Under the pieces are notes generated by a model. That model made no database searches. It saw only the letters and a list, made by a program, of their open reading frames with translations, and was not told the DNA's origin. Below are positions 10,627 through 58,389 of a DNA stretch of 64,000 nucleotides, one piece after another. The position numbers were made by a program, and so were the translations under genes. Within the stretch, counting starts at the first letter, position 1. Every line of letters begins with the position of its first letter. Source of the DNA: Apostichopus japonicus (Eukaryota > Echinodermata > Holothuroidea > Aspidochirotida > Stichopodidae); contig NC_092580.1 of the NCBI RefSeq assembly GCF_037975245.1, positions 7,784,501 through 7,848,500 on the forward strand, given 5' to 3'.

Positions 10627-13600
10627 CTGTGACAGATAAGATATATTATACTATTAGTTGTTATAAATTTAACCGATAGGTATCTGGAAGTGGCTGGACT
10701 AAATACCTAACGATGGCATGGCACAGTTGACATGAAGAATGACGTGTCATAACGTTATTTTTGGTTTATGTAACGACGATAAACTCAGAAGAGCGTACAT
10801 TAATAACGTGAATCAGAATATTGGCGTATCGTTAGCTGGGAAGGAAGGATCGGCAATACTCTGTGTAAGAAATGGAAAGGTAACTTATAGGTTCAAACAA
10901 TGAATGGTGTTTAATTTTACAATTTATGACACTCTTAAAGAGGGCATTTACTCACCAAGAATTCCACCTATGCTCTCCGTAAATCCACTCGTTTCCTGAA
11001 TGTAAAGACCAAGATGTTCTTCACGTTTCTGTTTTCGAGATCCAACCCTTCTTTTGGTTCTTATGTCACTGTGTCTTCTTACGTACATCGATACACCTTT
11101 CATGTTATTAATCTCCAGAACCTTCTCGGCTGGGTCCACCCTGAGGATGAAACCATCAAATGCCATTCTCGATTTGATCTTCCAGTCCATTGTTAACCCC
11201 CCTTCGACCTCAATACTCCTGGGGGTTACAATTAGGGCGTGCCTTCCCAGATTTAATCCAAATGCCGTGAAGAAACTCTTTGAAGTACCTCCCGATGTCT
11301 CAGAAAGGGAACCGATGACGGCGTTGATATTAATACCTAAAAATAACAGTACAAAATGAATGCTATACTTCTTAATTAATCACGGTTAATTAATCACTTT
11401 ATAACCATTACATATAGCTATATATATATGCATGTATGTATGTATAAATAAATAAATATATATATATATATATATATATTTATACATATGAGTGTGTGAA
11501 AGTGCTTACCAATTGTCTCATCACTTATTAAATTTATCATCGTTCCGTCTTCTCCTTCTACTTCAAAACAAACCGAAATGTTTTTCTTTGGAATAGTTAA
11601 AAAAACACGTGGATCACCGTCGGCTGTAGGATAGAGCAAAGAGGTAGCAACAATCATATATATATATATATATATATATTTAAGTAAGTGTACGACAGGT
11701 GTTCATTGAGAACTGTGAATCGTTTGCAGTTTTCTATCAAAGAAAACAAATGTATACTGAATATTCAGTAGATCAAATTTTACCACTTCATATCAGCGAA
11801 TGTTGAAATACAAAATCGAGCAAGCAGTATACTCCATTTCTCCTATTGGCATACCCACTCCTCTCCTTACCTCCCGTCCCATCTTTCCCCTTGCACTTTC
11901 ACTCAGTTTGCATTATCTTTCTAAACAGACTCCAGTCGTGTCCATCAGAAATGCTCTCCACAATTACATTAGCTGCTTCTGCTCCATGATTGATGATATC
12001 ATAGAAAATAGACTCAAATCTCGTACCTCGTAAAATTGTCTGCACAGCGATCGGTGACGTGGTCGGTGGAGTGGTCGGTGGAGTGGTCGGTGCAGTGGTC
12101 GGTGCAGTGGTCGGTGGAGTGGTCGGAGGAGTGGTCGGTGCAGTGATCGGTGCAGTGGTCGGTGGAGTGGTCGGTGGAGTGGTCGGTGGAGTGGTCGGTG
12201 GAGTGGTCGGTGGAGTGGTCGGTGCGGTGGTCGGTGGAGTGGTCGGTGCAGTGGTCGGTGCAGTGGTCGGTGCAGTAGTTGGTGCAGTGGTCGGTGCAGT
12301 GGTCGGTGCAGTGGTCGGTGCAGTGGTCGGTGCAGTGGTCTGTGCAGTGGTCGGTGCAGTGGTCGGTGGAGTGGTCGGTACAGTGGTCGGTGCGGTGGTC
12401 GGTGCAGTGGTCGGTGCAGTGGTCGGTGCAGTGGTCGGTGCAGTTGTCGGTGGAGTCTTCGGTACCGTGGTCGGTGCAGCGGCCGGTACAGTTGTTGGGA
12501 ATATTGACGGACCAATATTATAAAAATCTGGAAAAACAAAAAACAATACATTTATTGCAGATATCAAATTTCAGATGTAAGATACCTATCATTAAATATG
12601 ATAATGTAAAGATTCTCTCAAGAATTATTGTTTAATATGTCAAAGTATTTAGCCATTGTTAATTTAGACTCACCATAATCATAACTGGTAGGATGACTTA
12701 GCCGAAAATCTGATGTGCGAAGAATGGAATATGGAAGAAACAAAAAACAGTACATTTATTAACTAAATTGGAGATATCAAATTTCAGATGTCAGAAACAG
12801 ATACCTATCATTAAATATGATAATGTAAAGATTCCCTCAAGAATGATTGTTTAATATGTTAAAGTATTTAGCCATTGTTAATATTGGAACTCACCATAAT
12901 CATAACTGGTAGGATGACTTAGCCCAAAATCTGATGTGCCAAAAATGCAACCCCAGGCAGATCTCCGTAATCCAGCAGATCCAAACCATGGGCGGATTTG
13001 ACGGGAGTATAGTTGTGAGCCTGTATGGTAGATAACAAATAATAATGAACATGATATCGTTACTGATGTCAAATGTAAGATACCTATCATTAAATATGAT
13101 AATGTAAAGATTCTCTCAAGAATTATTGTTTATTGTTTAATATGTCAAAGTAATTTTTTTTAAATACTTTGACATATTAAACAATAATTCTTGAGAGAAT
13201 CTTTACATTATCATATTTAATGATAGGTATCTTACATTTGACATATATTATAAAAATCTGGAAAAACAAAAAACAATACATTTATTGCAGATATCAAATT
13301 TCAGATGTAAGATACCTATCATTAAATATGATAATGTAAAGATTCTCTCAAGAATTATTGTTTAATATGTCAAAGTATTTAGCCATTGTTAATTTAGACT
13401 CACCATAATCATAACTGGTAGGATGACTTAGCCGAAAATCTGATGTGCGAAGAATGGAATATGGAAGAAACAAAAAACAGTACATTTATTAACTAAATTG
13501 GAGATATCAAATTTCAGATGTCAGAAACAGATACCTATCATTAAATATGATAATGTAAAGATTCCCTCAAGAATGATTGTTTAATATGTTAAAGTATTTA

Positions 13601-16600
13601 GCCATTGTTAATATTGGAACTCACCATAATCATAACTGGTAGGATGACTTAGCCCAAAATCTGATGTGCCAAAAATGCAACCCCAGGCAGATCTCCGTAA
13701 TCCAGCAGATCCAAACCATGGGCGGATTTGACGGGAGTATAGTTGTGAGCCTGTATGGTAGATAACAAATAATAATGAACATGATATCGTTACTGATGTC
13801 AAATGTAAGATACCTATCATTAAATATGATAATGTAAAGATTCTCTCAAGAATTATTGTTTATTGTTTAATATGTCAAAGTAATTTTTTTTAAATACTTT
13901 GACATATTAAACAATAATTCTTGAGAGAATCTTTACATTATCATATTTAATGATAGGTATCTTACATTTGACATATATTATAAAAATCTGGAAAAACAAA
14001 AAACAATACATTTATTGCAGATATCAAATTTCAGATGTAAGATACCTATCATTAAATATGATAATGTAAAGATTCTCTCAAGAATTATTGTTTAATATGT
14101 CAAAGTATTTAGCCATTGTTAATTTGGAACTCACTATAATCATAACTGGTAGGATGACTTAGCCCAAAATCTTGTGTGAGAAGAATGGAACCCCCAGCAG
14201 ATCTCCCTAATCCAGCAGCTCCAGGAGACCATGAGCCGCTTTGACGGGAGTTTAGTTGTTGGCCTGTATGGTAGATAACAAATAATAATGAACATGATAT
14301 CATTACTGATGAGTATTAATAGTTGCAAAAAGAAAGAAAATGATACTGGCGCATATTAACTGATAAATCGTTCGCAGCTGTATTCTCAAATAAACAGTAA
14401 AAATGACAATGGAACGGTAGAATATGGACGAACTTACAGATACAGAAATAGAAGGAAGTTATTAAAAGTGATTCATTCACTGAAATCATTGTCGATGTCA
14501 TTGTTAAGTAAAGAAATCGGTTCTCAACGGAATGAAACGCGTCAGCCGTAGACAGTTCTCATGTGACGGTTTAAAACAAGAATAAATACACAAAGAGAAA
14601 CAACAGTTTATTACAATATAATTGTGATCACAATGTTGTGCCATCTCCATATAGTCTTTGTATCATCCGTTTGGTCACCATGCTAGATTTACAATCCACA
14701 TATAAAATAATTTGAAATATTTTGGGAAATAGGCCATGCAGGAAGAGCACATTAACGTATCCTGGACTAACCGTATAACATAAGCGTATTGAAGAGGAAC
14801 CATGTACTATACCCTCGAATTTCCAAAGAGTGGGAACTCATTCTTTGAGAGTGTTTAGGGGGATTTTTAGATCGTCGGAAGAAGGAAATCAATAGTCTCG
14901 TCAGTGAGAATTCTTGCAAGGTTATCTCTTTCAGAATGAACCCTAACTCTAGGTTTAGAGATAAATTTACATGACGTCACAGTTTAATGAGAGTGTCATT
15001 CTTCTCGTCCATTACGTCACACTCATAAACACATACCGAAGAAATGAATTCTCACACTTTGGAAGTGTATATACCGTTTAATTGTCACTTATAGTGTTAC
15101 GATTTTATATAATTTTTATTCCTGATATATTATACCTAATGAGCCGTAGGACTCTTCCTGGTTCTCAGTTTCTAGGATATCGTCATAGTTCTCCACATCA
15201 TCTGGTTTGATGACTATTAGTGACGTCAGAGGGGTAACAAATTTATACTTTAGAGCAATGCCTGTTGCTTTGTCTCGAATAGAATTCTCCTCCTCTTCGG
15301 ATAGAGCTATCTCGAGCTGTGCTAGAAGTTCTTTGATCGTGACGTAAGCCCACAGTCGTTGAGCAAAGTCATCCACCTGATGCGGTTTCAATACAGTGTC
15401 ATTCCCACCTTTATTAAGGCGACTCTGTGATCAAATAAGAGGTTGTGATGGAATCAAAATCACTCTAGAAAATATCTGACGTTACTTTTACTCAATGAAT
15501 TCATCAGCAAAGTGTATCAATAAACCCAAACATTCTTTGGAATTGACACAATATCGATAACCGATCCGCTTCCCTTGTATTATTTTATTTGTTTGAAGAT
15601 TCATAACTAATCGGTATCGATTTTCCTATTGCAGCAAAATAATAAGATCAGATGATTGATCAGAATGAGTCGCCTTTGGGCAATGAACTAAAGAAATACT
15701 ATATGAACATTTCATCCAATGAGAATAAAGAAAAGAAATACTATAAGAAAATTTTATCCAATGATAATAAAGAAAAGAAATACTATATGAACATTTCATC
15801 CAATGAGAATAAAGAAAAGAAATACTATATATATGAACATTTCATCCAATGAGAATAAAGAAAAGAAATACTATAAGAAAATTTTATCCAATGATAATAA
15901 AGAAAAGAAATACTATATGAACATTGCATCCAATGAGAATGAAGAAAGCAAAAGAAAATATTTCCAAATTTTATGTTCAAATTCACCCTTAGAATGAGAA
16001 CGTGCCGACAGTCTGAGAAAAATAGTAAACATAGTTGACCATTCAAAAGATTAACAATTGCAGATAATACCAATGATTCTTCTAATTTGCTACATTCCAT
16101 TCGCTTGAAATGATATCTACTTAAACTTAAAGATGTTTTGTACCTCTATGGTCTTGGTCAAGCCCCACTCTAACTGGACGTCGAAGGAATTTCCCACAAC
16201 GAAGGCAGAGAGTTCATTACCTTCGTAGTCATCCTTAAGTTTACCGGCGATCACAATTTCTGTTCCTTCGAAATAACTAATAAAGTTTGTTTTTGTCAAA
16301 GTGTCCATCTCTACAGCATTCTCCGGGTACTGTACATCTACATTATGGAGGATGGGAGTTGCAACTTCTTTATAGAATCCATCTAATTGCAAGCTTGGGC
16401 TCGAGTCGGAATATATTTTCCTTGCTAATCCTTGGTTGTGGCCGGAAAGCTTTTGCAAAAGCTTGTAGTCTGCTGTGGCACCAAAGGCCAATGAAAGGAG
16501 AGCTATTTTGCCATCAATCGCTTTTGTGATACTTTCGACGATTTCTGAAGTTCCGGTAATGCCAGATGTTGGTTCGCCATCAGTGAGGAGAATAATCATG

Positions 16601-22600: not shown

Positions 22601-25600
22601 TAAATTAATAACGTTAGGCCTTAGTAAGCATAACTGTTGCCAACGCTAGGCCGAAGCTAGGCTAGGAGTTTAGTCTACCTATAGTGTAGCCCACAGGCGC
22701 TCGTAGAGGTTTAGTACTATAGTAGCAGTAATAAACACTTATATGACATATATTATATAAATGTGTATTATTAGCTAGTATACTATATTCTATAATGTTA
22801 CGAGCGCCTGTGGTGTAGGCTAGCCTACGTCAAGTTTCTAGATACTTCGTCGACACGCCAACCCAGTCTGGATTATTTTCGTGCACTCTGAACTGAAGAT
22901 CTTCTGCTTGGAACTTTCTTTAGGTCTTAATTAGGCCTATAACTTACTTAAAATCTTGACGTACCTTTGGTGTGAGTATAACATGAAATGCAACCTGGAC
23001 GCCAACTATTCCACTACCAACTCGGACTTGTCCACACGCCAACTACTAGTCCACTCTCCCTGTTGGTGTCAGGTCCACTAGCTACCAATTCGATCACTAA
23101 CAACTCGTTCACTACCATTATACCAAGTAGTCCACTCCCCAATTCGTTAACTCGCCAACCCGTGCTCTACTTAGGCATACCTGTTATCAGCAAACTCCAA
23201 CCAATAACACTAAAAAAGCTTCTTGTTTATAAATTGTATGGTAAATTTCAAACCAAACAAGTAAAGAAAAATACTAAATAGTGTAACAAACTATAGCCTA
23301 ATTACTAATTATTTGTGATAAATGCGACATTCACCAGTGGCGAAGTCGTGTTCACGGTATATACGAGACAAATGGAACTCATCGAAATATACACATAGCC
23401 TAGGCTAAATGTGTATAATATCCCAGGTTAAGGCTTAATTAGTTTGTTACATTTTACAATATTTTTTTAATTTTTCATATAATATTTTTTATTATTGTTT
23501 TGAAGGATTAACCTGAAAACAGGTAGTCCGGTATGCACTATATAGTAAGGCCCTAACTCGTCCCCATGTTCGTTTCACTTACCATATATATTTCATCACA
23601 AGGGCAGTTCTGACATATTTTTCCCCCATAGAGGCTAGGAGGCCTATATCATCTTCTTACATTGAAACATTTGCTGTAAAGGGAGGGGAGGGGGGGGGGG
23701 GACAAAACTAACATAGCATACATGTTGTGATCCCTTACCTAAGAACATTTCTTATATCGTTCACCCCACCAAAAGAAAATACCCCCCATCTAAAACATCA
23801 TTAATAACTCAATAATAAAAAATCAATAATAAGCATAGCCAGGACTTTGAACTTTTGGGGCATGACATCCAACTGTGGGCATTAAAATATTGTGGGCCAG
23901 TCGGTAGTAGACAAGTTGGCAAGTTAAGTGACTAGAGACTCTATTGGATGAATTGTAACAATTAAATGCAAAATCATCAGTCATGATTTTTAGAAAACAA
24001 CTGGCCTAGCCTTTGTTACCGATCGGATCTTAAAATTTGGGATCTGGTACATCCCTATTTTCCAGTACCATATTGGTCAGAAAATAATGATTGGCACAGG
24101 TGTAGGCCATAATTGGTATTGATTTAATATTTTCTATAAGGATAATTGAGAAATGTATGAAAGTTCAACCAGACTTGACAAGTTTTCGTTGTTATGGGAT
24201 AATTTACAGTACGGTACATGTGTTCCAAGTCCTTTTTTGCAAGAGGTTTTACAATGAAGTCTGAGATGGTGAGTATTGGTGAACAGCAAATACAGTCATT
24301 GAGTTCACAAAGAATGACCAAAATTAATAGTTAATAAAGATGCTCAAGAGTAACAGTTTTAAAACAATGTTTGTTTAATCAATTTGGGAAACTTAAAGAA
24401 TGATACAGCAAATTTCATGCAGTTTACTTTTTCATGCATTTATGTGTTATTAAAATTTGTTATAGTTATTTTCCATTTGTCTCATGCAGATAATACCATT
24501 TCATTGAACAGGGAGATTGCCATATACCAACTCCTCATTTTCATATTGTGCTAGAGATTATGTTACATGCCTATGTTCATTTTCATTTAACAACAAAATC
24601 TCCTGTTTCATGATATTTTTTTACAAATGAATGTAAAAAAGAAATGAAGGAATTGGTAACATATTTTTGAGCAGAATTTATTGAACATCTAGCTGCCACT
24701 ACCACAATGCTTTATACTACTTCAGTCATCTAGCTAATTACAACCTTTTTTGGGGCGAAATAGTTAATAGCAAATTTGCAAACGTATCGGCAATATAGTT
24801 GACATTTCAATCTTCAACACTATGGTAAACTTCCCATGTTGTCAGTGCCAGTTCACCACACAAAGCTTTTTAAGTTTATTACATTATAGATACATGCATA
24901 AAAGTCCAGACGATTAAAATCACATGTAACATAGACAGTTGTCATTAGTTGCGTAGGAAGGTACTTTTGAGTGGAAGGGTTGAAGACTGATGGCCGGCCT
25001 GGGGGAGGGGTCTTCGTTTGGAATTTTTTTGCATTTCCAGGTGGCCTCAGATGCAATTTGTTGCAAAATATAGCACACTTCAACACCCACTCCATTTTGT
25101 AAATAATTTTGCATTTTCACCTGGCCTTAGATGCAATTTGGTGCTCCAAATGAGATTTTTTTTCTGATTTGGAAATTAAAAAGGGGTTTTCTGACTTGCA
25201 AAGCGTGGGGGGGGAGGAATGATACTTCCGCCCCCCATATTTTTCACTGGGGCGGGGGCTGGCGCCCCCCTAATCTTGTTGCAGTTGAAAGTAGCACAGA
25301 AGAGCAAGTTGCAGCATTTCTTATTGGTTTGCGAGAAAAATTTAAAGTTTGCCATGAAGCTTGTATTTTTGTCACTGGACTAAGCTTTGGTCGATAGAGG
25401 CATAGTAGTAGGACTCGATTTAATTAGTCACAAAACTAATGTTATATTGTCAAATGATTAGAAGAAACTGGTCGATAGAGACATCGTTGTGACTAATTTG
25501 TTTGTAGTTATAATGACTAACTATTGTTTACAGTACACACATGGTACTTACATGAAGAAATCACTGATGAAAGCTCCTTTTGATAATCTGAACCGAAAGT

Positions 25601-34970: not shown

Positions 34971-37900
34971 CACCATGTAAAGTAAACTTCCAGCCTCCGC
35001 CACGATGCGAGACTGGGCCTTCTGTACCAACTAAGCTATTTGGACCCTGATGGTCAGTCCAGAGGTTTGAAACCAGTGAGGAAGGTTGTGATTTTCCTGA
35101 AGGCTTATATTATATACAAGGATGGTAACGAGACTATAGAGATGATATTAGACAGTGCTTACCAAGGCCCTCGTCACTCATTAAGTTAATCATCATTCCG
35201 TCTTCTCCTGTTATTTCAAAACACAGTGAAATGTTTTCCTTGGGGAGAGTAACAAAGACATGAGGATCACCGTCAACTGTAGGATAGGAGAGAACATAGT
35301 ACACCTGGTATGAGTCATAGTTATCATTCACAACACCTAAGACATTGGTTAAATTGTTCATGAACAGTGAAATAAATGTAACATGCATATTAATGAGTTG
35401 ACAATTATCTCTTGTTCTCATTAAATAATTGCAAAAACAATAATACGTGGCCTATATAATTGCAGCCCTGGTGCTTGGGTATTAGTTTCAATAATAATAC
35501 TAATACTAATATATAGTACTAGTAAGTGAACAGTACTCCATTTCAATCTCACTTCGCCCCCCCCCCTCACCACCAACCCCTGTGACCCCTTTCCCCTCTC
35601 GCTCTTCAGTGTCTATAAGTACCAGTGTCTATAAGTACCAGTGTCTATAAGTGCTCCCTAATTACCATAGAACTGTTGATCCTGATGACATTTCTTGGAT
35701 TTCGTTATCGTTTGGCAAATTCAGAATTTTTCAATATTATCACAAATTTTTTTCTGATACAGAACTGACAAAGTGGCAGTATCACCTGCAACTTCCTGAC
35801 ATGTATGATTCGCAGATCATGTGTATGACTAGAAGTAATTCTGGAACCGTCCCAGCTGCAAACACAAAAACGTTTTAAAAACGTTATTAAAACGTTTCGT
35901 CTTTTGTTTTGATAACGTTATTTGTGGTGTGATAAGTATGTCACGAAAACGTTTCTATTATCTCAAAACAGTTTTTCGATAAAACATTAATATAACATTA
36001 AAATCTCATATAAACGTTATGCCGACGTTTTTATAACACCACATTTAACGTAATAAAAACATATTTTAGAGACTCTTTTAAAAATGGCATGATAACGTTT
36101 TGTGTTTGCTGGGGTGTTACTTAATTTCTTGTAGTAGTACGTTAGCAACATACACCTTCAATGATGTATTCAAACATACTACGTTGTTATACGGTAGGCT
36201 ACATGTAATAACATGACACTGCCTGCCGGGGTAATGGTGTATGACTGTGGTATTACTATACAGTAATGCAGTATAGAATGCCACATGGGTCATACTGTAT
36301 ATACTATATTACATGACTCCTTTGTCTTATGTAATTACTCGTTGGGTACATGAAAGTACGTTCATTCCAGTCACATGTTCGAACACCCATCCTACACACA
36401 GAGCAAGCACACAATACCCAATCTGATAAACATCTTGGAATGGTGTAAAGAGGTATACCGCCAACTAGCTAACTGTCAGTTGGGGCTATGTCCTTGACTC
36501 TGATAGAACTGACCAGTGAAAATACCAGTGAATTACAATTTGTAAACGCAGATGAAACGATTGAACTGGCCAATCTGGTACGGAATTCAAATTGGTTAAA
36601 GGTGATATAGTGGTATCGTGTACACAGTCGATATAAATGACAAGCCAACACCGATTTAGGCTGCTACTGTAATGATTAACTTGAATACCAGTATAGCCCG
36701 GCAGCCCAGTGCACTTTGATCAAACGAACGAGGTACCAATATCTGAGTATTGGAACATTTGTGGAAAAACCCAATATATCCAAAAGTGGATGTCTGCCGT
36801 GGTCCCTCTGCTGCATGTGGCCCCTGGGGCCTGTTAAAGGGGCCCCAAAAATGCATCTGATCAAACGAACGAGGTACCACTTGAAACCAATGTCAACTTA
36901 ATGCATGAATGCCACAAAGTACTGAATGGCCCATGCCAGACAAATTTTTCTGCTGCAAAGGGCCCGCCAGACGCCCCCAAATATGGCCAAATGACCATTA
37001 TCGTAGCATTGACCCAGATTAAATATGCAAGGTACCACTCAAAACTGGTTTGGAATGCTCGGGTCGATCTTACAGACTATGGAAATCATCATGCCAGACA
37101 AATTTTCTGCTACAAAGGGGCCAACAGACACACTGAAAAAAGGGCCCCCAAATGGGCTATGATCAATCATAGTTGGTACCACGCAAAACCAATATCAAAT
37201 GCAAAGGTACTTTCCACAGAGTAAAGAACTGCCAATGCAAGACAAATTTTCTTCTGCATAGGTCCCACCAGAAAGAAAGAATAGGTGGTCCAATGTGGCC
37301 CTATATATGGGTCTAAAGAATTGGATATATGTGCCTTGTAACATGACATTTCAAGCTCATGCATGATTATATTATTTCCAGCATAAATTGGAGTTACTGT
37401 ACACAAGACCAGTGTTTTAAGGCCAGTGTTTTATCTTATTTAGCTATTCGCTGCTCTAATCAAAATAAAGATAACACTTTCACCTAAGCCTCTACATATT
37501 TTGGGATTTGCAAGTCTGGGCAAGAATTACATTTCCCCACATTATAATTCTAACGCTCTGAGGAAGAGTCTTGCCTGGCTTGGATCCATAGAGCTACGGA
37601 TGGAAGAGCAAGAATGGGTGCTACAGCCCTGACTAGTTTGAGGGACCGGCTCTCCCAGATCATCTATTCCAAGAGGGGGAACTGAGCGAAGATTTTCAAG
37701 GTAGCCGACCAGACGTGGCTTCCGAGTTTGATGCCGTTGATTCAAGTACTGAACCATCTTGGAGTGATGACCCCGACAATGAAACACAGATTTGAGCTTC
37801 CATTGTCTTTTTAGCATCAAGTTTATGGGAATACTTAATTTTCATAAACTTACTAATTATTCTTTTGAGATCTGTCTGAATGGCAAATGCAGTGTCTTAT

Positions 37901-40900
37901 TACAATGCACACACTCCAGTGTTTAGTCACTGTCAAGAGACATGAAATTCTCAGTTCTTATACTTCGAAGCAATACCTAACATGTGTCATATTCAGAGTA
38001 TTCACACAGTGATCTTTTGTTACTATCTTTGCCAATTATGATTTTAGTACATTTTAAATTAGCAAGTTCTAAAAGACCAAGATGGAGTAATATAGGCCAA
38101 TTACTCATTTTATATTTTGTATCAAGGAATGGAGTCATACGTGGTGATATCAGTATCTGTTTGTTCAATCTTAGCATTATAAGTCCTTTAAAGAGTGTAC
38201 CTAGCATAAAGATACATATACATATCTATGCTTCAATTATGTATCTTTAAAAAAACATATTGGACAGTTTCATCCCAAACCTTTATCGTTAAGTACACGT
38301 TATAAAGCATATTCACCATTGTTTGATTTTTGTTTCTTTGTCTGAGCTTAATATACAAAACAATCTCCTTTGTTCGACTACATGTATGTCTTTAGATGAC
38401 ACTTAATCGTTCTTCCTCAAGATTTTAAACTTTGTAGATTTACAATGCTAACGTAAACACAGTGTGTTAAGACACGAAATTATTTTGGGTTTCTTATTTA
38501 CAATACATAAACTGATTTTAATCTGCTCCAGTGTTTCCAGCGAAACAAAGTAACTGCCAAGTTAAACACTGCTCACGATACAAAGTACTGACTGGATAAA
38601 AGAAAAAAGGATAGATACAAGAAAAAAGAATGGATTTGAGAATGCATTATAACTGTCAGGATCTCCCTCAAAGACTGAGTTCGCGTCATTTTAGTTTTGC
38701 TCAATAAAATGTTCAGTAATTGATACACCTACTAGTATACTAATCTCATTATTCTATTGGCCTATGTAGCGGGAAGGAATTTGAATAATTCAGGATGTTC
38801 TTGATTGTTATAGATTGGTTTCTTAAGGTATCTTAAATATTTAAACTGAGTTGGGGGCCCTTTTTTTAGTGTGTCTGTTGGCCCCTTTGTAGCAGAAAAT
38901 TTGTCTGGCATGATGATTTCCATAGTCTGTAAGATCGATCCGAACATTCCAAACCGGTTTTGAGTGGTATCTTGCATATTTGATCTGGGGCAATGCTACG
39001 AAAATGGGCATTTGGGCCATATTTGGGGGCGTCTGGCGGGCCCTCAGCAGCAGAAAATTTGTCTGGCATGGGCCATTCAGTACTTTGTGGCATTCATGCA
39101 TTAAGTTGACATTGGTTTCAAGTGGTACCTCGTTCGTTTGATCAAATGCATTTTTAGGGGCCCTTTTGGGTCGTCTGGCGGGCCCTTTATAGCAGAAAAT
39201 TTGTCTGACATGATGATTTCCATAGCCTGTAAGATCAACCCGAACATTCCAAACCGGTTTTGAGTGGTACCATGCATATTTGATCTGGGTCAATGCTACG
39301 ATAATGGGCATTTGGCCATATTTGGGGGCGTCTGGCGGGCCCTTTGCAGCAGAAAATTTGTCTGGCATGGGCCATTCAGTACTTTGTGGCATTCATGCAT
39401 TAAGTTGACATTGGTTTCAAGTGGTACCTCGTTCGTTTGATCAGATGCATTTTTGGGCCCCCTTTAACCGGCCCCAGGGGCCACATGCAGCAGAGGAACC
39501 ACGGCAGACATCCACTTTTGGATATATTGGGTTTTTCCACAAATGTTCCAATACTCAGATATTGGTACCTCGTTCGTTTGATCAAAGTGCACTGGGCTGC
39601 CGGGCTAGTAGACTAACACATGATGACAAAACAAGAAAATACAAATACCTGACATTGGCTGGGGCAATCTTTGTGGTGCTGTATAACAAAGAAAAATAAG
39701 GATGTATATGTAAACATGATATCATGATTTACTTTTATCGTCTTGATGGTTAACTTCATGGACTAATTAAACATTATTATTAAAACTATATGGTTCATGA
39801 AGTGGTATGTTCAATGGTTTTAACCTTAAGTTCTGCCAGTTTGAAACTTACATGGTTAGACTATATAGCTGGCACTCTGAACTGATAACCCTGTATGGTA
39901 CTTAAGAAATGATATTGAACATTCATTTTACAGCAAAAGTGGGAGATATGGTTTCACTATAGTGGTATGTTCAATGATTTTAACCTTAAGTTCTGCCAGT
40001 TTGAAACTTACATGGCAAGACTATATAGCTGGCACTCTCAACTGATAACCCTGTATGGTACTTAAGAAATGATATTGAACATTCATTTCACAGCAAAATT
40101 GGGAGATATGGTTTCACTGTAGTGGTATGTTCAATGATTTTAACCTTGCGTTCTGCCAATTTGAAACTTACATGGCAAGACTATATAGTTGGCACTCTCA
40201 ACTGATAACCCTGTATGGTACTTAAGAAATGATATTAAACATTCATTTCACAGCAAAAGTGGGAGATATGGGTTCACTATAGTGGTATATTCAATGATTT
40301 TAACCTTGCGTTCTGCCAATTTGAAACTTACACGATAAGACTATATGTCTGGCAATCTAATCATGTAAGGTAAATAAGAAATGATATGATATAGATTCAT
40401 TTCGCAGCAAATGTGCGGGATATGGTTTTACATTATATAGTGGTACCAAGTTTAGTTCTGCCAATTTGAAACTTACCTGAATAGCTGTAACTCCGTGATG
40501 CCACTGCTACTGTATGGTAAATAAATGAGAAATACAATTAAAAGATTCATTTCGAAGCGAACGTGCAGGATTTGGTTTTACTATCGAAGCAATCTTCTTA
40601 TCGGCCTGTTCTCCATCGACGGTATGTTTTTGTTGTACAAAAGCCTCGCAATTATGAAATATTTTGGTATCTAGACAAAACAAGTCCAAAGCAAGCTTGG
40701 TTACTCATCAATTCTTTAGTTAAGGGTAAACAGAAAGTTGGTTTTCCGTGTAAGCTTAATCCGTCATTGCGCAACCTAATTCTAATCATTTTGACATAGC
40801 CAATGCTTTGAATGATTCCTATTCATCAATTGGCCTAGTCATGAGCTAGATTCATCAACCTGCCCATCCAACTTCCTGGGAAATCCTAATACCAACTCAA

Positions 40901-43900
40901 TTTTTGTTACACCTGTGTCGAGAATGGGAGATTCTGAAACTTATTAATGGACTTCAGGATGGCAAAGCGTCGAGAGTATAGATGGTATTTACGCCAAGCT
41001 TGTTAAATCTATCTCTCATGTATTAGCTCCCATACGTGCACATATCTTTAGAAAGGTATTTACTTCCGGTATATATCCTGACGCTCAGCGAAGGATATTC
41101 CACTGTTTAACAAGGGTGACCACTCATTATCTTATCTCAATTTAAACGATAGGCCTATAAGTATAAGTTTACTGTATTGAATAAAATTCTGGAAAAAAAG
41201 GGTGAAAAAACGGATGAGATTGTGTTTCAAGCAATCAGGATATTATTTACAAATTTCATTTGGTTTTAGCTGCGTGAGGGTCACTCAACATGTTATGCTT
41301 TAACAGAAATTGTAAATAACATTTACTCCCAATTGGATAATGGTAACAATGTACTAGGACTTATATTTACACTTGAAGAAAGCATTTAACAGCACTTAAC
41401 AGGATCTTTCATGCGAGTAAATATAATAAACAGATAGGTTCTGAGAGCTTTTCCTTAAAGGTACCAAAATTAGCAGATCTTCTTTCACAAAGAAGTACAT
41501 AGGTTCGACCATTGACGAGAATTTCAGGTGGAAACAGCATGTGAATGAATTACGTAATTCCCTCGTTCAGTATGAGTGACACAATCCAAGTTGATACTGC
41601 AATACAGCTTTATTAATCGTTTATTTATTTCTAGGCTTTTCTTATGCTATTGAAGTTTATGGCACAGCCTGTGCTACTCTCCTCAAACCTCTCTAGATAA
41701 TACAAAAAAGATTACTCAAAAATCTCTACAGAATAGATTACTCAAACCTCCCCAAACTAACCAAAACAGAGTACTAAAACCTCTACAGACTATACAAAAT
41801 AATACTCAAACCTCTCCCGAATATAAAAAATACATAGATTACTCAAACCTCTCCAGACTATACAAAATAGATTACTTAAACCCTCTCTATACTATACAAA
41901 TAGTTTACTTAGATCTCTCCAGACTATACAAATAGTTTACTTAAACCTCTCCAGTCTATACAATTAGATTACTCAAACCTCTCTATACTATACAAATAGT
42001 TTACCTTAGCCTCTCCATACTATACAGAATAGATTACTCAAACCTCTCTATACTATTACTTAAAACTCTCCAGACTATACAAATAGTTTACTTAAACCTC
42101 TCCAGACTAAACAAATAGATTACTCTAACCTCTCCAGACTATACAAATAGATTACTCAAACCTCTCCAGATTATACAAAATAGATTACTTAAACCCTCTC
42201 TATACTATACAAATAGTTTACCTAAATCTCTCCAGACTATACAAATCGTTTACTTAGATCTCTCCAGACTATACAATAGATTACTCTAACCTCTCCAGAC
42301 TATACAAAATAGATTATTCAAACCTCTCCAGACTATACAGAATATATTACTTCATTCTCTCCAGACTATACAGAATAGATTACTCAAACCTCTCCAGACT
42401 ATACAGAATAGATTATTCAAACCTCTCCAGACTATACAAAATAGATTACTCAAACCTCTCCAGACTATACAAAATAGATTACTCAAACCTCTCCAGACTA
42501 TACAGAATAGATTACTCAAACCTCTCCAGACTATACAAAATAGATTACTCAAACCTCTCCAGACTATACAAAATAGATTACTCAAACCTCTCCAGACTAT
42601 ACAGAATATATTACTTCATCCTCTCCAGTCTATACAATTAGATTACTCAAACCTCTCTATACTATACAAATAGTTTACTTAAACCTCTCCATACTATACA
42701 GAATAGATTACTCAAACCTCTCTATACTATACAAATAGTTTCTTTAAATCTCTCCAGACTATACAAATAGTTTACTTAAACCTCTCCAGACTATACAAAT
42801 AGATTACTCTAACCTCTCCTATTGTTTCTTCTAGTGTCCATCATACGTAACATTAAATGTCATTCTTTGTTGCAACTATTTTTGTCAGTGAGTTATTGTA
42901 TATATGAGAAATAAATTAAATTGAATTGAACTATAGTGATATGTTCAAAGATTTTGACCTTTAGTTCTGCCAATCTGAAACTTACCTGGTAGTGGTAGAC
43001 TACTAGCGCCGATACTTTGAGGCTGTGAAATCCCTGTATGGTAAATAAGAAATGAAAAAGATCCTTTTTGCAGCAAAACAAGTGGGAAAATTAGATGATC
43101 AAATATAATTTTGATTCCATCTATTGCTTGGGAAGTCATTTATCATCCGAATCAAACTCTTATTCAACAAAATAGATTACTCAAACCTCTCCAGACTATA
43201 CAAAATAGATTACTCAAACCTCTCCAGACTATACAGAATATATTACTCCATCCTCTCCAGACTATACAGAATAGATTGTTCGAACCTCTCCGGACTGGCT
43301 ATACTGGCACCCTATAGTCTTGCTGAAACTGGATACACCGGCACCCCATTGTCTTGTATCTAGTTGTGAGAGTGGCTTAGGCTGGTCCCTCTTAAGTGAG
43401 GGAACTTAGTCTGTCTTTTATACTTACTTCTGGCAATTTGAGCTACAACACAGCAAACGCACACACTACACCCTCTAGTGGTACAAGCTACAACACCATG
43501 ATTAAAGTGTCGGAATTCACTACTCTTAGAAGAGTGGGTATCATCTGGACCATGCACTTTCAAAGGATGAAGCTTGCACCATAGACCTGTCAACTGTAGT
43601 ATATTGTTTATATTATATTGCACCATAGACCTGTCAACTAGAATGCATTGTTGATATTATATTGAACCAAAGACCTGTCAACTAGAGTGTATTGTTGATA
43701 TTATATTGCACTATACCGTGTGCCTGTGCATTATTTATTGGAACATGCTCTTCCTCCGTCTCAGTTTCTAGGATATCGTCATAGTTCTCCTCATCATCTG
43801 GTTTGATGACTATTAGTGACGTCAGAGGGGTAACAAATTTATACTTTAGAGCAATGCCTGTTGCTTTGTCTCGAATAGAATTCTTCTCATCTGCGGTTAA

Positions 43901-46900
43901 AGCTATCTCGAGCTGTGCTAGAAGTTCTTTGATCGTGACGTAAGCCCACAATCGTTGTGCAAAGTCATCCACCTGATGCGGTTTCAATACAGTGTCATTC
44001 CCACCTTTATCTAGGTGACTCTGTGATAAAAAATACACATTTGCCATTGACAATGATAACTCTTATTGGAATGCATGACATAATCAAAGCTTGTCCAATG
44101 AACATATCAGCCAAAACTATCTATAAATTCAATGAGCATTCTTTAAGACGTGAAACAGATTGAGTATCTTATGAGCTTCTCCCAAAGGAAGAGTATGGAA
44201 TGGTGGGATATGGAAGCGGGTGGCCCAAGGGGGGGGGGGGATAAGGTGAACACAGTTTGTGGCAAAGTACTGAATTCATAAATCAAATTACCTTTTGCAG
44301 AAGTAGAAGATAGATAATTAAGCGGCGGATATGTTCAGTGTCATTACACGTAACATTGAAATGGAAAATTGAAATAGAAGTAGATATATGAAAGGAAGGC
44401 GTTTGATTGCATATTCAAATTCACTGTCAATCACGTTTAAGTAGATGTGAACTTGGAGACAGCTAGAAATCAATATAAATCAGCAGGGGCATCAATCATG
44501 GAGGGGAGGGGGGCAGGGAGACATGTCCCCCACTTTTCTGAAGGGTGGGGACACAAAATCAAATGTCCCCCCCCCCAGGTTTAGTGACCTGACTTGTGTA
44601 GGTACTAGGCCTATCAGGCCCCTATGATTCATGTATCACATCAAAGAAGCTCAAACATTGTGCTTTTAGATTGATAACTATTTTAGTAATATGATGTCAT
44701 GGGTTTGTACCTTATTATTGCATATGTTCACATGTTGCATATTCCAGAGTAATTCGATATATAGTAAATACTATAACAACAAAGTTCTTATTTTTAAATT
44801 TGATATACAGATATTTCCATGTTGAGATTTTACTGATACATCATTGACATATGTGTATATATACATTAATACACATATAGCTGCAGGGAATATGTTCTCG
44901 AGTCACAAGATCTCATCCATCTCATATGAGCTCCAAGATGCATGTCTGCACCATTCTCACATGTTCTTGTGTTGGTCTCGCGAGAGTGCGAGATCTCGGG
45001 TCGACCTCTGTTCATGCTCGTGTGATCTTCGGCTAGTCCCGCGTGGTCTTGTACAATTCTCACAATATCTCGCATAATTCTCACGAGATCTCGTGAGAAT
45101 CTCAAGAGAAATTTTCATATGTATGTATATTAGATCCTCCTGCAAGCAGGAACTCGCGAAGAAGCCTAATTGGCTTATCAAAGCCGCAAGCTGACCGAAG
45201 TCAGTCTCTCACATTCATATTTAACGTCCATGATTATGAATTGTTAATTGTCAACAACTCTGTAACTGGACGACATACATTAATCTGGGAGTGACTCGAA
45301 CCGGGGACCTTATGATTGAAAGGCACCGGTGTTAACCACTGAGCTAATCCTCCACTATGGGACCAATGTTTTATTCCCAGCTGCTCGACCCCCTGATGAA
45401 AAACAGAACTCTTCAACCGGGTTGAAATAAGAGTTATGGATTTCATTTTTAGCAAAAATCTGGGATTTTTGTAAAAGCAAAAATGTATATAAATTTCAGT
45501 GTGTTTTTTTTACAGCACATTTGCAAAATATCATATCACAACATGCTATAAATAGTATAACATTACCTCGATAGTCTTGGTCAAGCCCCACTCTAACTGG
45601 ACGTCGAAGGAATTTCCAACAACTAAGGCAGAGAGTTCATTACCTTCGTAGTCATCCTTAAGTTTACCGGCGATCACAATTTCTGTCCCTTGGAAATAAC
45701 TTATAAAGTTTGTTTTTGTCAAAGTGTCCATCTCCACAGCATTCTCCGGGTACTGTACATCTACATTATAGAGGATGGGAGTTGCAACTTCTTTATAGAA
45801 TCCATCTAATTGCAAGCTTGGGCTGGAGTCGGAATAGATTTTCCTTGCTAATCCTTGGTTGTGGCCGGAAAGCTTTTGCAAAAGCTCGTAGTCTGCTGAG
45901 GCACCAAAGGCCAATGAAAGGAGAGCTATTTTGCCATCAATCGCTTTTGTGATACTTTCGACGATTTCTGAAGGGTTGGTAATGCCAGATGTTGGTTCGC
46001 CATCAGTGAGGAGAATAATCATGGACAAAGCATTTCTAACGTTTTGATCTTCCAATTCCTTGAGCCGAATGATGGCGTCCATTAAGCCACCGTGAATATC
46101 AGTGCCTAAGATGAGGGACGAAATTAAAACAATTATGAATAATGTTGTTCAATTAAAGTAGCATATAATAGCATATGCTCTAATCAGACTGCAAACATGT
46201 TTTAAATGAAAAATCACACATACATAAAATATGCACAACCAATTCATGATTTTGTGGAACTGATGTGATAACAGTAAAATGAAAAAGTTAAAAAATTGTT
46301 GTGTTCGTACAATTACTAGGTGCGTCAATCATGGGGTCACAGGGAGCCACGTCCCCCACTTTCTGAAGGGAGAGGGAAATACAATATCAAATGTCCCCTC
46401 AGGTTCGTGACTGACTCGTGTAGGTACTTGACCTATCAAGCTCATAATGACTCGTGTATCTCATATTGGGAGCGCATGCTTCAAGCTACATCAGATTATT
46501 AGTTACAAATATGCGCGTGAATGGTATTTATGGCGAGCACAAGGTTTTGTTTAACCCGCTCATCACAACTATGCACCATCGCGGATGCGATAACCATCAG
46601 TTTATTTTTGGTTTTCCCGACTTTTGTTAGAATAATTAATATTGAGACACAATCCCCTACACCGCCCACCCACAAAGTCGAAATAAATATTTTCTAATTT
46701 ACCTATTTTTATGTAAGTGTTCCTTACCAAAACATCACATCTCAAAATATAGAATGTTTAGATGACTTACAAGGCAGTGAAGTTTCCAGTAATCTCTGAA
46801 GAAACTTTCTTGCTATGTTAGGCACCAACCGATGGTGGCGCTACCATTAGATAGCGTCATGGTGGTCCCTTTTAGGAAATTGCTCACTTACTAAATAATT

Positions 46901-49900: not shown

Positions 49901-52900
49901 ATACAATCAATCTACTCACTGAAGATTATCTTTGAGAATGAGAATAAATCAATTACAGTATACTATAAATCTACATGATCCATTAACAAGATGACTCAAT
50001 ACAATAATACCTTTGCTTGACTTGACCGGCAGTCAGCCCTTGTCTCCTGGCTTCGTTGTAGGCCTTTTGGGCTTCTTCCTTCTCACGAACGTCGGCCTGA
50101 TAAACCCGACCCTTAATGACCCTGGGGTTCATTGGAATATAAAAGGAAAGATATTTCACAGAGAAACTGATAATTTGGTATTTAACATAAGTAGCAATTA
50201 AGTAAGTAAACACAAACAGGGTAAATGTGACTTGTTTAAAGATATTTTAATAATTAGCAAACGAAGAGGAAAATATGCTATCAAGTTAGCAGTTGACTTG
50301 AAACATCATTAATCTATTAATTCTGGAAAAGGATCGGTGTGCACAAGTTCAGTACATATCCCAAGAGCTGTAAAAGGGTAAAGGGTGGGGTGTAAAAGTA
50401 GATTCTATCGATAAACAACTAACAGCTTAACACTATTTGATGATCGATATGAAATTAATTTGCATATACGAATTAGATACGAGCAATAATTCATACTTTC
50501 AACCATATTAACAAAAGAAAAATATTTGTGTTACAGATAATCATAATGAACAATACCCATACAAATAGTTATGTTGTTTTAAGTTAAGCTCTTTCATATT
50601 CTAGGCTGTATACTCGAGAAAGTCATGATGAAGGAACCACCAAGGATATGTTTAAGTGTCCACATAACGTACTCACATGATGAAAGAACAACCAAGGATA
50701 TGTTTAAGTGTCCACACAAGGTATTCATGATGAAGCAACCACCAAGGATATGTTTAAGTGTCCACACAAGGTACTTACATGATGAAGGAACCACCAAGGA
50801 TATGTTTAAGTGTCCACAGAAGCTACTTAAATGAAGAAGTCACTGATAATGTTCAGCTATACTCATATGGTACCCACATGAAGAAGTTACTAATGAGCCC
50901 TTAGCTGTACTCACATGGTACCCACTTATGATGTGTTCAACTGTACTCACATGGTAGCCACATGAAAAAGTTACTAATGATGTATATATGCCACTGTACA
51001 CAAATGATACTTACATGAAGAAATCACTGATGAAAGCTCCTTTTGATAATCTGAACCGAAAGTCTGAGTCTTGAGACACATTTGCTTGGTTTTCTATTTC
51101 TGTTATCACAGTTGTACTGACATATCTAGCTGTGATGGTCGTCTCCACGTTAAGGCTTCGGATCCGTGGTGCAGGGTAAGATGTTAACTAAAAGATGAAA
51201 TGAACATGGTTGGGTTGTTGGCTTGAAAAACAATGTAGAAGTGTTTTTAACAAGTGATGCATCCTGATATCGCATTATATATTGATCAACTTACCGTAAC
51301 GAATACATTCTACCATGAAAAATTTCAACAAAATATTTCCTTTTGTCTCATTATGAAATAACGACTTTTTTCCATAATTGGGTTTACAGAAACGTGGTTC
51401 AATAAATGAAGTTCCCCCTTTCAATCATAAACAATAATACTCTAGAAAATCACTGTGACGAAAGAAGGGGTGGCGGGGTCTGCTCGTTTGCTTATTTAAT
51501 ATTTTATGTTTTAAGGAACGGCTAGATCTCTCTATTTTTAATATAACTATCGAATCTATATTTATAGAAAATGTTGTTTGGTTGTATTTATAGACCACCC
51601 AGCGGTTCAATAGACGATTTTAACTCCAATATTTAACATATATTCAACATAATAAGTCAAAACAGTTATGATTCATATATAATGGAAGGGTTAAGTATTG
51701 ATCCATCAGATGTAAACAAATCAACTGGTGTTCTTAACTTATTCTCGACCGGATTTTATCCAACAATTACTACACCAACTCGTATCATGGCAACCTCAGC
51801 AACTATACTTGATCATATCGTAACAAATGATCAAATTTAGTGTATATTGGGTATTTTGATTTTTCGTAAAAGGGCCAAACAAGGACTTTTGAAAGGAGTG
51901 GACTTAGCCATGGGATCGTTGAGGTTGAGTCATGTGTAGGGTTATGTGGTTCTTCCCTTAACGTAAAACTGTCATATACCATAAACTCAATGAAGTTCAA
52001 AGGTTTAAAGTTGGTCGGTGTCTGACGACAACCCCGCCCCAGAATGATGATATGCACCATAGTAGTCACATAACCTACTTGAGGAGGGGGGGGGGGCTCC
52101 AGGAATTGCACTCATCTGGCTATCAAATGAAACAACGGAATCATCTGTGGATAATTAGAATGAACACCAAATCGTTACAACGTTTGCATGTCGCTTGCTG
52201 CGACCACGCTATGTTGTAGAAGTTGGATAATTCCCAGTCCTCCAATTTCATAGGCCTATGCTTTCCGGATGGCAGCCGGCAATTCAGATTAAATAACAGG
52301 AAATTAGCACCTTAGAGACATATACTGGGGTTAGATTCAATAGATAAGGCTGAAATATTCAAGCAGTGTTTGGTTTTCTACGATATTGAACAATATACCA
52401 TATTTAGGCTAATCCTTCGGCCTTCCCGTATGAATCATAACGCTGCTTAAGTAAACATACATTTGTATGCCAAAAAAGGTAATGTGCCTTAACCAAGGGA
52501 GTCATCATCTCACGTGACAGATCCATGTATGAAACACGATTCAAGGGAGAAAAGAGCTAAAGATTACAAGAAACAAGCTCATGCATAGTAATTAATCGAA
52601 GCCCTCAGCCTCTTCGAATTTGTAGGTAACTTTTTCACAAATCACTAAATACAACATGATTGGGTGAAACATTCGCATTTGTTGATTTCAACAAGTGATT
52701 TAAGTATATAAGTAGCTGATGTAAATCTGCAGCCTTGCCGTATTAATCAGTTCGTAGGTTAATTTACTAAAACGAACAGTTGTTTGCAGTCGTCCCACTA
52801 CGTGACTGAACTTGGCCCACATAGCCTTATACGTAGTAACATTAGGCATACGTTATAGTATAGGCCGAGTAGGGTTTTATATTGAATACGTAATGAACGG

Positions 52901-54840: not shown

Positions 54841-54989
54841 TCTGCAAGAAAGACAAGACTCTAAATTTAATCGATTATTTCCGATTGTAAATAGTTCTTC
54901 TTTAACTGTAAACTTCATACATCTTTTATGTTAAATAATGTGTATTACGTAATTACTTTTAGATTGATGCAATACAGTCACAACTCTCC

Positions 54990-55085
54990 ACAAATTACGA
55001 GGGAATTCTTTGCTTGAAGCTATCAATGTTGATGCCAATATTTCAGTTTTCATCGGTGATTTCAACATTCATGTTGACAATAACA
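54990..55085 (+). mobile_element. LINE endonuclease fragment
   Basis: Plus-strand frame INVDANISVFIGDFNIHVDN matches the conserved GDFN(I/L)H motif of non-LTR endonucleases. Short isolated fragment. Confidence 0.65.
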
Positions 55086-58000
55086 ACTCTATATAATGTG
55101 TATTACGTAATTACTTTTAGAAAAGTCATAATTCTCCACAAATTACAAGGTTATTTATTGTGACCTACTCACCGAAGCTTTGTCTAATCGTCTTTAAAGA
55201 CTGTATTATACGCACAATCTATTGAACATTATTCTATGAAACACGGTTAACAATAGTTAAAGGTTATTGTAGTTGCCTCCAAACATTTTCCTGTGAGTGA
55301 CCATTTGTTTCACTTTCTAGCCTATTTTCATCACCTTTCGCGTTAAGAGAGAGAATTCACTAACTTTCACTATGACTTTAACGAACGGAGCAGAAAGCTC
55401 ATTTGGTGTAATCCATTAACTTGCGAGATCAATTTAACTCTAATGAAATGCTCAGTTACGAAACTTATGTAGACCATCGAATTTATGAGTAAGTGTAGAC
55501 AAGAACACATGAGGGATCCCGTTACTTCAGTGCCACCATTCAATGTAAACCATTCAATTACAACTAAATGTTATTTCGTTTAACTATAGTCTTTGCCGTG
55601 AACTACGAATATAGGCTTAGTAGATGTAAAGACCTATTTACATAAATGTTTCTATTAATATGTTAACCTATGATATTAGCTATAAGCCTATATAAACCAG
55701 CACCTTTGGATAAAAGATACAATGCAACTTAAAGCAGGTTTTCTCTTTAATTCTCGAGTTTATCAAATCTATGTTTACATCTCTAAAAATTTATTGATTA
55801 ATTTAGGACATCATCACAGACATTTACACTAAAGGTTGGATAATGAGAACGCAATCCCCAGCCATCTAAAAAATTTGGTTACAGGAGATTTCTAATGAAC
55901 AGCAAGATTATTTTCCAGGCCTACCCTCGTTTTATCATATAAATACTGTAGTTATGTTTGGCTGGCTGTAAATAAATTAAAAATGAAACTGAATCATGGA
56001 TTTCATTCCGAGCTCTCAACATTTCGTCGCCCAAAAACATTCTCGTATAAGTTATAAGCTAATTACCTAATTTTGTTACGGGTATGTAGCGCTGACGAAC
56101 TTATAATTAAAATAACTTATTCAGTTTAATAAGGAAAGAGCTAAATTAAGGTAAAAGAGACTTACCTAGAGACCCTATAGTAGGATCTCTAGACTTACCT
56201 TCAAGTGGCTGCCCTCAATCAATCTTAAGTTACTGCAGGGTTTTTTCTTTTCACTACTTCAGGCTGCAACCAAATCGCATGTGTTCTAACGTCGCATAAA
56301 GAATTGGTTAATATAGCCTTTGCGAAATGAGTTTAGCCTCGGACCTATATACGACATGTCTTATTCTTCAGTGGAAAGAAGCAATTCTCGGCTATTGAAG
56401 CATAAAGAAATATGTTGAGAAACAAGGGAATAAAGAAAACAAAGGATACACGATAGTCGACGTAATAAAACGTAAACGGATATACTCTGTTCCTGCTACT
56501 TCAGGTTATGCCATAGAACGACATTATTATAACGTGGTAATAGGAAGAGTCAATTGGGGCAACTCTACAGTTATCTATGTCACACTTTAACCCTATCGTT
56601 CAGGGCAAGAAACCATACACCAGCCCACGCACTTCCCTTGAAATATACGTCTTTATAGCTGTAATGATGAGGTCAAAAATTGTAAGACGTCAGAATTATT
56701 TTAAAACCGGAATTACTTGAGAAGGCAAAGGAATGGTACTATCTCAGTGAAATATATCGATCGCCGTTATTTGATCAGATACTAAAAGATTGAAAGATAC
56801 TGTAGATGCAAGCGACACGATCAATTTTTCAAACAGCAAATGAAAGGATACAATGTTTATGTCAAACGTTTAAAACTTTAGAAAGGAACATAATTATTGC
56901 AAAATACGACAACATACATACATGTAACGGTCTTTTAACCCAAACACTAAGCCATACTAGTCCCTATATATGGCATACTATGCCACAGACCGGTGTTGTC
57001 AGTTTGGCGTTCAACAAGGACAAACTTGCCTCTTCTTCTTTCCTTTTTTTTAAATATCATTGACCGGAGGAAAATGAAAGGTCCGCATAAACGACATTTT
57101 GGCGTTTTTTAATTCGGTCATTTCTTTGAAGACCTGCCAATTTAAATAGTAGCAGTTCCAATCTGTTAAATTTGTCTCAAAGAACATTGGTTTTAACCAT
57201 TAAATGTTGTTCAGTCCGACTAAAGGTCGCATCATAAGCATCTGTAAAACATTGTGGATTAATGTGAATTTTTTTTCCCTTATCGTTCACTGAATAATGT
57301 GCAGTCATGAGCACCAATTGCAACGGATTTCGAAGCGCACAATTTCTTCCCATGCCTATGTACAGGGTCGATTGTCATACAATAACAGCAAGTTGGTATT
57401 TGGCGTTTTTTTTTCTCTCTCACCAGACTTGGCCGCCAATTTGGCCGTTGGCGTCACCGGACAAACTGGCAACCCTGCTAGTGCTGCATACTACTTTTGT
57501 TCAGTACAGATATATATTGTAAATTCACATCGGTTGGTAGCTTGTCCCTTGGGAATAACGCAAAGTGCACTCTTTCGAACGTCTATTTGATATATATATA
57601 TAATATTGACCAGGATATATCGAACGTGTATTGCTCACTTTATAGTGTAAAGATATATAAATCGATAGTATCGATCACTATCTACTACAGTAACTTAACA
57701 CAACGAACTTTTATATTGATAACCTTAATATATGATTACATGCACGATGCCTGTATATTGAGTCCGTAATACATGTTCTCGCAATCCAGTGTAGTTGCCT
57801 GCACTTTGTACAGGTCTCGCACCACAGTTAATTGTTCCATTGACTTACACACTAAACTCGTCACTTTCAAGATCTGCCAAAGCATAGATAGAAGATTTCA
57901 ACTGGTTTATCCCACCCACCACATGATAGCTGAGATCTTGGCCTATCATAGCACTTGCAAACTTCTATATCATGACCATTTAGATTTTGAGCTAGAAGAG

Positions 58001-58389
58001 GAGAAAGTTTAGCCTACTGAACCCCCACCCTTCCGTCTGCTCGCTCGGGAGTAATAAAAAATATTTAACCAAGGGTTTTCTAAAATGGTTTATATTACCT
58101 TCGATCCTCCCTATTTTCCCACCATCTTTACTTCAAATTATGCTCTTTCACATAAAGGCAGAATTAACGATGATGATAACTGATAACATGCTTAAACAAG
58201 TATTATCTTAGGTACTTTTATCTCTTTTCTCTGACAATGGTTAACCTGTCGAGCGGAGGTACAAGACTCTAATTGTGGTACTTAGTATACTCTGTAGTGC
58301 AAGATAAAGCCACTCACAGTCGCGCCTAAGCTTGTATACTCTCGTACTCATATCATACCTATAGAAGGATTGTCATTTTACTCACACCA

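What the first reader, a model, noticed from the sequence alone, without database searches (positions are those of the whole stretch)
39649..43033. Linker built from cassettes of small phase-1 exons, different in each paralogue
Between the post-vWA exon and the Asp-Pro exon, every exon in both genes is phase 1 at both ends, so any can be added, lost or skipped without a frame change. Gene 1 has 36, 126 and 129 nt exons plus a Thr-rich exon; gene 2 has 30-48 nt exons. The acceptor context ACCATACAG is shared, suggesting a common founding exon followed by separate expansion. This could tune spacing between the vWA domain and the glycosaminoglycan link point, or generate many isoforms.
Basis: partly seen in the sequence, partly recalled or inferred. 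Interest (0 to 1): 0.75.

Follow-up and report, generated by a model that had tools for sequence, protein, structure and literature searches.

The report
Fast-evolving cassette-exon linker in ITIH genes
Two neighbouring animal genes for an extracellular-matrix protein have, in their flexible linker, different sets of duplicated small exons, and in one pair the coding letters seem to have changed faster than the non-coding DNA around them; whether these exons reach the messenger RNA is untested.

Summary
The window lies in a minus-strand array of inter-alpha-trypsin-inhibitor heavy chain (ITIH) genes. Between the post-vWA exon and the Asp-Pro exon, gene A (window ~10-26 kb) has candidate 1-1 exons of 129, 126, 36, 126, 36 and 501 nt (Thr-rich); gene B (~33-51 kb) has 48, 33, 39, 39 and 30 nt.

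Phase 1 at both ends is forced, because the flanking boundaries are phase 1 wherever I could read them. Two of seven B units look dead: one lost its acceptor and is 31 nt long, one has an in-frame stop. One distant paralogue (Q) has two strong small 1-1 candidates here and another (Z) two weak ones, so mini-exons may be older than A and B.

A B-only acceptor-side profile finds A's acceptors next in 257 kb (E 0.0024); the reverse gives 0.019. Donor sides do not cross-match.

New here: in A129 against A126, 16/93 nonsynonymous, 1/30 synonymous and 7/189 intronic changes (p 2.6e-4, post hoc; 1.5e-4 to 0.013 with other flank lengths). Other pairs are mixed. Best reading: birth-and-death of symmetric cassette exons in a flexible tether, perhaps with diversifying selection. 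No RNA evidence.

The parts
43717..44062 (-). Gene B post-vWA open frame up to its likely phase-1 donor (weak, CACG|GTATAG); 44062 is the end of the open frame, not a splice site
42986..43033 (-). Gene B cassette candidate, 48 nt, 1-1
40477..40509 (-). Gene B cassette candidate, 33 nt, 1-1
40332..40362 (-). Decayed gene B unit: acceptor AG lost, 31 nt between the conserved flanks
40172..40210 (-). Gene B cassette candidate, 39 nt, 1-1
40012..40050 (-). Gene B cassette candidate, 39 nt, 1-1
39852..39890 (-). Gene B 39-nt copy with an in-frame TAA in phase 1
39649..39678 (-). Gene B cassette candidate, 30 nt, 1-1; flanks not alike to the 160-bp unit
39801..40358 (.). 160-bp tandem array carrying the 39-nt copies (diverged copies run to about 40584)
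35163..35276 (-). Gene B Asp-Pro exon (VDGDPHVFVTLP), phase-1 acceptor
15136..15430 (-). Gene A post-vWA open frame up to its phase-1 donor; 15430 is the end of the open frame
14135..14263 (-). Gene A cassette candidate, 129 nt, 1-1
13625..13750 (-). Gene A cassette candidate, 126 nt, 1-1
13404..13439 (-). Gene A cassette candidate, 36 nt, 35 of 36 alike to the tail of the 126-nt exon
12895..13020 (-). Gene A second 126-nt cassette candidate, identical copy
12674..12709 (-). Gene A second 36-nt cassette candidate, identical copy
12027..12527 (-). Gene A Thr/Pro-rich exon candidate, 501 nt, holding a 12-bp tandem repeat (12051-12492, 36.8 copies, 0% indels)
11510..11623 (-). Gene A Asp-Pro exon (ADGDPRVFLTIP), phase-1 acceptor

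Best explanation
The linker between the vWA region and the Asp-Pro attachment site of these two tandem ITIH genes is built from symmetric phase-1 cassette exons that duplicate, decay and diversify by unequal exchange (birth and death), probably starting from an older linker that already held small 1-1 exons. Because the boundaries on both sides are phase 1, any 3n cassette can be gained or lost without harm to the vWA domain or the downstream pro-domain. The encoded peptide would be a flexible tether: 63 aa in B and 318 aa in A (about half of it Thr/Pro-rich, probably O-glycosylated) if all intact cassettes are joined. In A the first two thirds of the 126/129-nt exon appear to be under diversifying selection, while splice flanks and the tail motif DFGLSHPTSYDY are kept. 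Shown: array anatomy, phases, flank conservation and the substitution counts. Inferred: splicing, disorder, glycosylation, selection and tether function.
For: Anatomy and phases. Flank-defined lengths all multiples of 3 except in the unit without an acceptor. B48 against B39a: flanks 82/97 alike, exon 25/39, close to shuffled (mean 21.8, max 28), Fisher p 0.011; P(<=25) 0.0014 at the flank rate. A129 against A126: N 16/93, S 1/30, intron 7/189, N against intron p 2.6e-4; neutral simulation of the synonymous count P(<=1 of 17) 0.027, and 0 of 17 changes in the 35-nt tail p 0.004. Conserved exons compared among A, B and C: dN/dS 0 to 1.03 in 24 of 24 comparisons. Small 1-1 candidates in Q (48, 39 nt). 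[quoted passage not shown]
Against: No transcript evidence. Two of seven B units are dead in phase 1; B39, B30 and A129 are weak by splice score. The selection signal rests on one pair (A129/A126), found post hoc; N against S alone p 0.069; one choice of intron block gives p 0.013; a first comparison that took in non-homologous downstream sequence showed no difference (53/353, p 0.63). Of the ten exon-against-flank comparisons, four had the exon less alike with p < 0.05 (B48/B39a, B48/B39b, decayed/B39a, A129/A126; the two B48 rows are not independent), five showed no difference (B48/B33 p 0.45, B33/B39a 0.61, and the three among the B39 copies), and one went the other way (A126/A36, exon 35/36 more alike than its flanks, p 0.0077). 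The 881-bp identical run could be an assembly artefact.
Confidence: 0.55

Rival explanations
1. The cassettes are mostly pseudo-exons: intronic minisatellite-like repeats that happen to hold splice-like sites and are seldom or never spliced in.
For: Background of open 1-1 candidates is about 1 per kb; two of seven B units are dead and B39/B30 are weak; the introns hold other minisatellites.
Against: High splice sums for B48, B33, A126 and the Thr-rich exon; flank-defined lengths all 3n; 501 nt open in phase 1 with 0% indels in its tandem repeat; divergence between B units begins at the splice sites for B48 and B39.
Confidence: 0.25
2. Gene conversion or unequal exchange keeps the introns alike, so the exon bodies only look fast; they are older or relaxed sequence without positive selection.
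For: A-B dS varies from 0.05 to 0.65 between exons, a mosaic typical of conversion; 881-bp identical run; N against S alone p 0.069; five of ten pairs show no exon-flank difference.
Against: Older neutral divergence should raise synonymous change too, yet S is 1/30 and close to the intron rate; neutral simulation P(<=1 synonymous of 17) 0.027.
Confidence: 0.3
3. The cassettes came in with a mobile element, whose sequence supplies the shared acceptor context.
For: Long inverted repeats lie in the A introns.
Against: Whole-genome searches with 321 bp of the B array and 1021 bp of the A array matched only their own linker; flank profiles found clear matches only at A and B units in 257 kb. The genome search skips very common words and missed the 74%-alike B48 unit, so diverged copies elsewhere are not excluded.
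Confidence: 0.06

Closest known systems
Inter-alpha-trypsin inhibitor heavy chains (ITIH1, ITIH4)
   Same: The A vWA2 exon matches three PDB sequences at E <= 0.001, all ITIH: H1 (6fpy, 6fpz, E 2.6e-33) and H4 (9c4f, E 2.7e-31); VIT, vWA, Asp-Pro and ITI_HC_C parts lie in that order
   Different: HC1 has about 20 C-terminal residues read as a flexible linker (PMC7170535, passages); here the linker would be 63 to 318 aa from cassette arrays. ITIH4's proline-rich region is recalled, not looked up.
Tandem duplication of symmetric 1-1 exons in extracellular proteins (recalled general pattern)
   Same: Units of exon plus flanking intron, phase-neutral, tandem
   Different: Very small (30-48 nt) or repeat-coding exons, separate sets in neighbouring paralogues, and in one pair an exon faster than its introns
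Accelerated exons with conserved introns, as in venom and some immune or reproductive gene families (recalled)
   Same: Nonsynonymous change above synonymous and intron change
   Different: Here within one gene's linker cassettes and shown for one pair only; the two searches near this topic listed no such case by title or abstract start (ten papers) or listed none

Membership tests
ITIH heavy chain | VIT domain | tested here: met
   PF08487 in the window at 25545-25700 and 21439-21570 (A), 51008-51163 and 50010-50117 (B), each over the cut-off of 26.5 bits as a part-domain exon match; three of the four matched stretches read one TAA
ITIH heavy chain | vWA domain of the ITIH type | tested here: met
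   PF00092 over its cut-off for both B vWA exons (27.3 and 27.2 against 23.8); ITIH1/ITIH4 best in the PDB for the A vWA2 exon. Metal-site residues not checked.
ITIH heavy chain | Asp-Pro cleavage and attachment motif | tested here: met
   DGDPRVFLTIP (A) and DGDPHVFVTLP (B), against DPHF in D, E, Y, Z and DPHI in X; the motif's role is recalled
ITIH heavy chain | ITI_HC_C pro-domain | tested here: met
   A 27.6 bits with one TAA in the matched stretch, B 27.1 bits, cut-off 27: both only just over
ITIH heavy chain | Ester link to chondroitin sulfate or hyaluronan | not testable with these tools
   needs biochemistry
Tandem symmetric cassette exons | Equal phase at both ends and length 3n | tested here: met
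   two of seven B units fail (31 nt, in-frame stop)
Tandem symmetric cassette exons | Units homologous to each other | tested here: met
   A units 99% and 78%, B units 73-84%; B30's flanks are not alike to the B unit
Tandem symmetric cassette exons | Included in mRNA | not testable with these tools
   no transcripts held
Positively selected exons | dN above dS and above intron divergence | tested here: inconclusive
   A129/A126: N>intron p 1.5e-4 to 0.013, N>S p 0.069, one pair, post hoc

The most novel reading that the evidence does not exclude
The linker is a diversity-generating module: tandem 1-1 cassettes with conserved splice flanks and hypervariable bodies vary in number and sequence between individuals and by splicing, giving each animal a repertoire of ITIH tethers under conflict-driven (immune or reproductive) selection.
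Probability: 0.13. Interest if true: 0.75.

Novelty: new variant of a known kind. Interest (0 to 1): 0.45.

Why it matters
If the cassettes are spliced, the ITIH tether would be a fast-evolving, exon-modular part of a matrix protein, with living and dead cassettes side by side in two neighbouring genes. That makes exon birth, decay and selection directly measurable with long-read cDNA and resequencing, and would ask what in the matrix or immune setting drives change in a linker thought of as mere spacing.

Tried and rejected
Mobile-element origin: whole-genome DNA searches with both unit types matched only this locus, within the limits told above. Uniform phase 1 as independent evidence: rejected, the flanking phases force it. 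Non-alignable A/B linkers as something special: rejected, since blastn (E 1e-8) between genes A and B aligned little beyond exons elsewhere too. First N-against-intron test with the whole aligned downstream stretch (53/353, p 0.63): set aside because the copies stop being homologous after a T-run; I tell it as a result against. Donor-side homology between A and B: pairwise z up to 4.8, but not found by profiles from one gene alone. Common acceptor ancestry: an early profile made from both genes was biased, so I repeated it from each gene alone.

Other open 1-1 candidates in the two linkers at sum >= 11 were not taken up: nested or longer variants of the named exons, and in B 43428-43442, 43428-43487, 43428-43586, 38577-38591 and 35571-35612, which had no cassette-like repeat partner that I saw. 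Splice score tables are approximate human-like values recalled by me. In the dN/dS table open frames were aligned locally and not trimmed to splice sites.

Papers: nine searches were answered; three of them listed nothing. No listed title or abstract start was about cassettes in an ITIH linker. Only PMC7170535 was opened, and only passages of it.

Full report
Place. The window is C20:7784501-7848500 of an unnamed animal genome of 671.6 Mb. It lies in an ITIH array on the minus strand. By exon homology I named genes E, D, C, B, A, Y, Z, X from high to low coordinates, with further relatives at 4.01-4.05 Mb (P) and 18.54 Mb (Q) on the same contig. Genes A and B lie in the window and gene C only partly. 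From genome size I suspect a sea cucumber, but that is recollection and the search for it found nothing.

Observation. ACCATACAG is enriched on the coding strand: 10 against 0.94 expected, and 1 on the other strand; 8 of the 10 are at these units, the copy with a stop included. A single open 1-1 candidate is common in background, about 1 per kb at my threshold, so the case rests on the repeats, the high splice sums and the flank-defined lengths.

Phase. I read the donor after the post-vWA exon as phase 1 in six of the seven paralogues printed (E, D, B, A, Y, Z; none assigned for C), and the Asp-Pro acceptor as phase 1 in seven of seven printed (E, D, B, A, Y, Z, X). Any in-frame insert must therefore be 1-1. 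The flank-fixed lengths are a fairer test: 129, 126, 48, 33 and 39 are all multiples of 3, while the unit with a lost acceptor is 31. Treating them as independent, chance is 1/243, or 1/81 if one is the reference (my arithmetic); 129 and 126 are related.

Dead copies. Of seven B units, five are open with both splice sites, one lost its acceptor and one has an in-frame TAA. That fits birth and death, and it weakens the claim that every exon is usable.

Common origin. A profile of the 50 nt before B acceptors finds, after the B units (the decayed unit, not in the profile, included), the three A acceptors at E 0.0024-0.0029, with the next hit at 0.083. The reverse profile finds B acceptors at 0.019, 0.028 and 0.22, and B48 at 2. 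Donor-side profiles do not cross over. Of 21 A-B body comparisons none is clear (best z 2.2, reached by 10 of 300 shuffles). So a shared acceptor segment is likely; a shared exon is not shown.

Older linker. Q has 48- and 39-nt candidates with sums 19.4 and 17.0, where background was 0 per kb at >= 19 and 0.025 per kb at >= 17. Z has 57 and 39 nt with sums 15.9 and 14.4; at 0.08 and 0.17 per kb in 3.5 kb these could be chance. Y has 51 and 90 nt (11.5 and 14.5), D and E none in a gap under 0.8 kb, X only candidates that overlap its post-vWA exon, and the 9 kb below gene C had six; P's third gene had 21 and 18 nt with sums near 11.6. Small 1-1 exons may thus predate A and B, with Q the main support.

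Rates. Between A129 and A126 the exon differs by 18 of 126 plus one 3-nt gap. By codon the counts are N 16/93.2 and S 1/29.8. The homologous intron block gives 7/189; N against intron p 2.6e-4, N against S plus intron p 1.1e-4. With six downstream lengths p ran from 1.5e-4 to 0.013. N against S alone gives 0.069. None of the 17 inner changes falls in the 35-nt tail (p 0.004), and the 36-nt cassette is that tail apart from one base. Conserved exons have dN/dS from 0 to 1.03 in 24 of 24 A-B, A-C and B-C comparisons. Over the ten exon-against-flank comparisons the picture is mixed: four with the exon less alike (p 0.0047 to 0.029), five without difference, and one, A126/A36, the other way. For B48 against B33 and B33 against B39a (p 0.45 and 0.61) the optimum gapped alignment, with 18 or 19 gap columns, matches no more than shuffled sequence, so it cannot tell fast change from replacement.

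Tether. Joined on paper, A would carry 954 nt (318 aa) and B 189 nt (63 aa) of cassettes. HC1 ends in about 20 residues read as a flexible linker (PMC7170535, passages). The A Thr-rich exon holds a 12-bp repeat with 0% indels and would be mucin-like (inference).

Verdict. The anatomy is real, the phase argument is forced, the founder is partly supported, and the fast exon in A is new and worth testing. Without RNA I hold the main reading at 0.55.

Noticed in passing
window 51400-60420: Gene C has VIT, vWA and post exons but no Asp-Pro or ITI_HC_C match was found before gene B; two ITIH-like genes at C20:4.010-4.030 Mb look alike in this.
   Followed up: partly
window 13245-14125 against 12515-13395: 881-bp 100% identical run at offset 730 bp: very recent duplication or assembly artefact.
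   Followed up: partly
window 12515-14111: Inverted repeats (up to about 220 bp at 83%) inside the A linker introns; the genome search with the A array matched only this locus.
   Followed up: partly
window 41727-42819 and 43167-43296: 33-bp minisatellite in B linker introns, 33.8 copies with 4% indels in the first stretch and 3.9 in the second.
   Followed up: no
window 36694-37272 and 39032-39607: Inverted repeat of about 585 bp at 89% in the B linker intron.
   Followed up: no
genes A and B: dS between A and B varies from 0.05 to 0.65 between exons, a mosaic that suggests gene conversion.
   Followed up: partly
G000:C20:7857330 and 7916639 regions (genes D and E): Genes D and E are nearly identical in the two exons printed, which suggests a recent duplication.
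   Followed up: no
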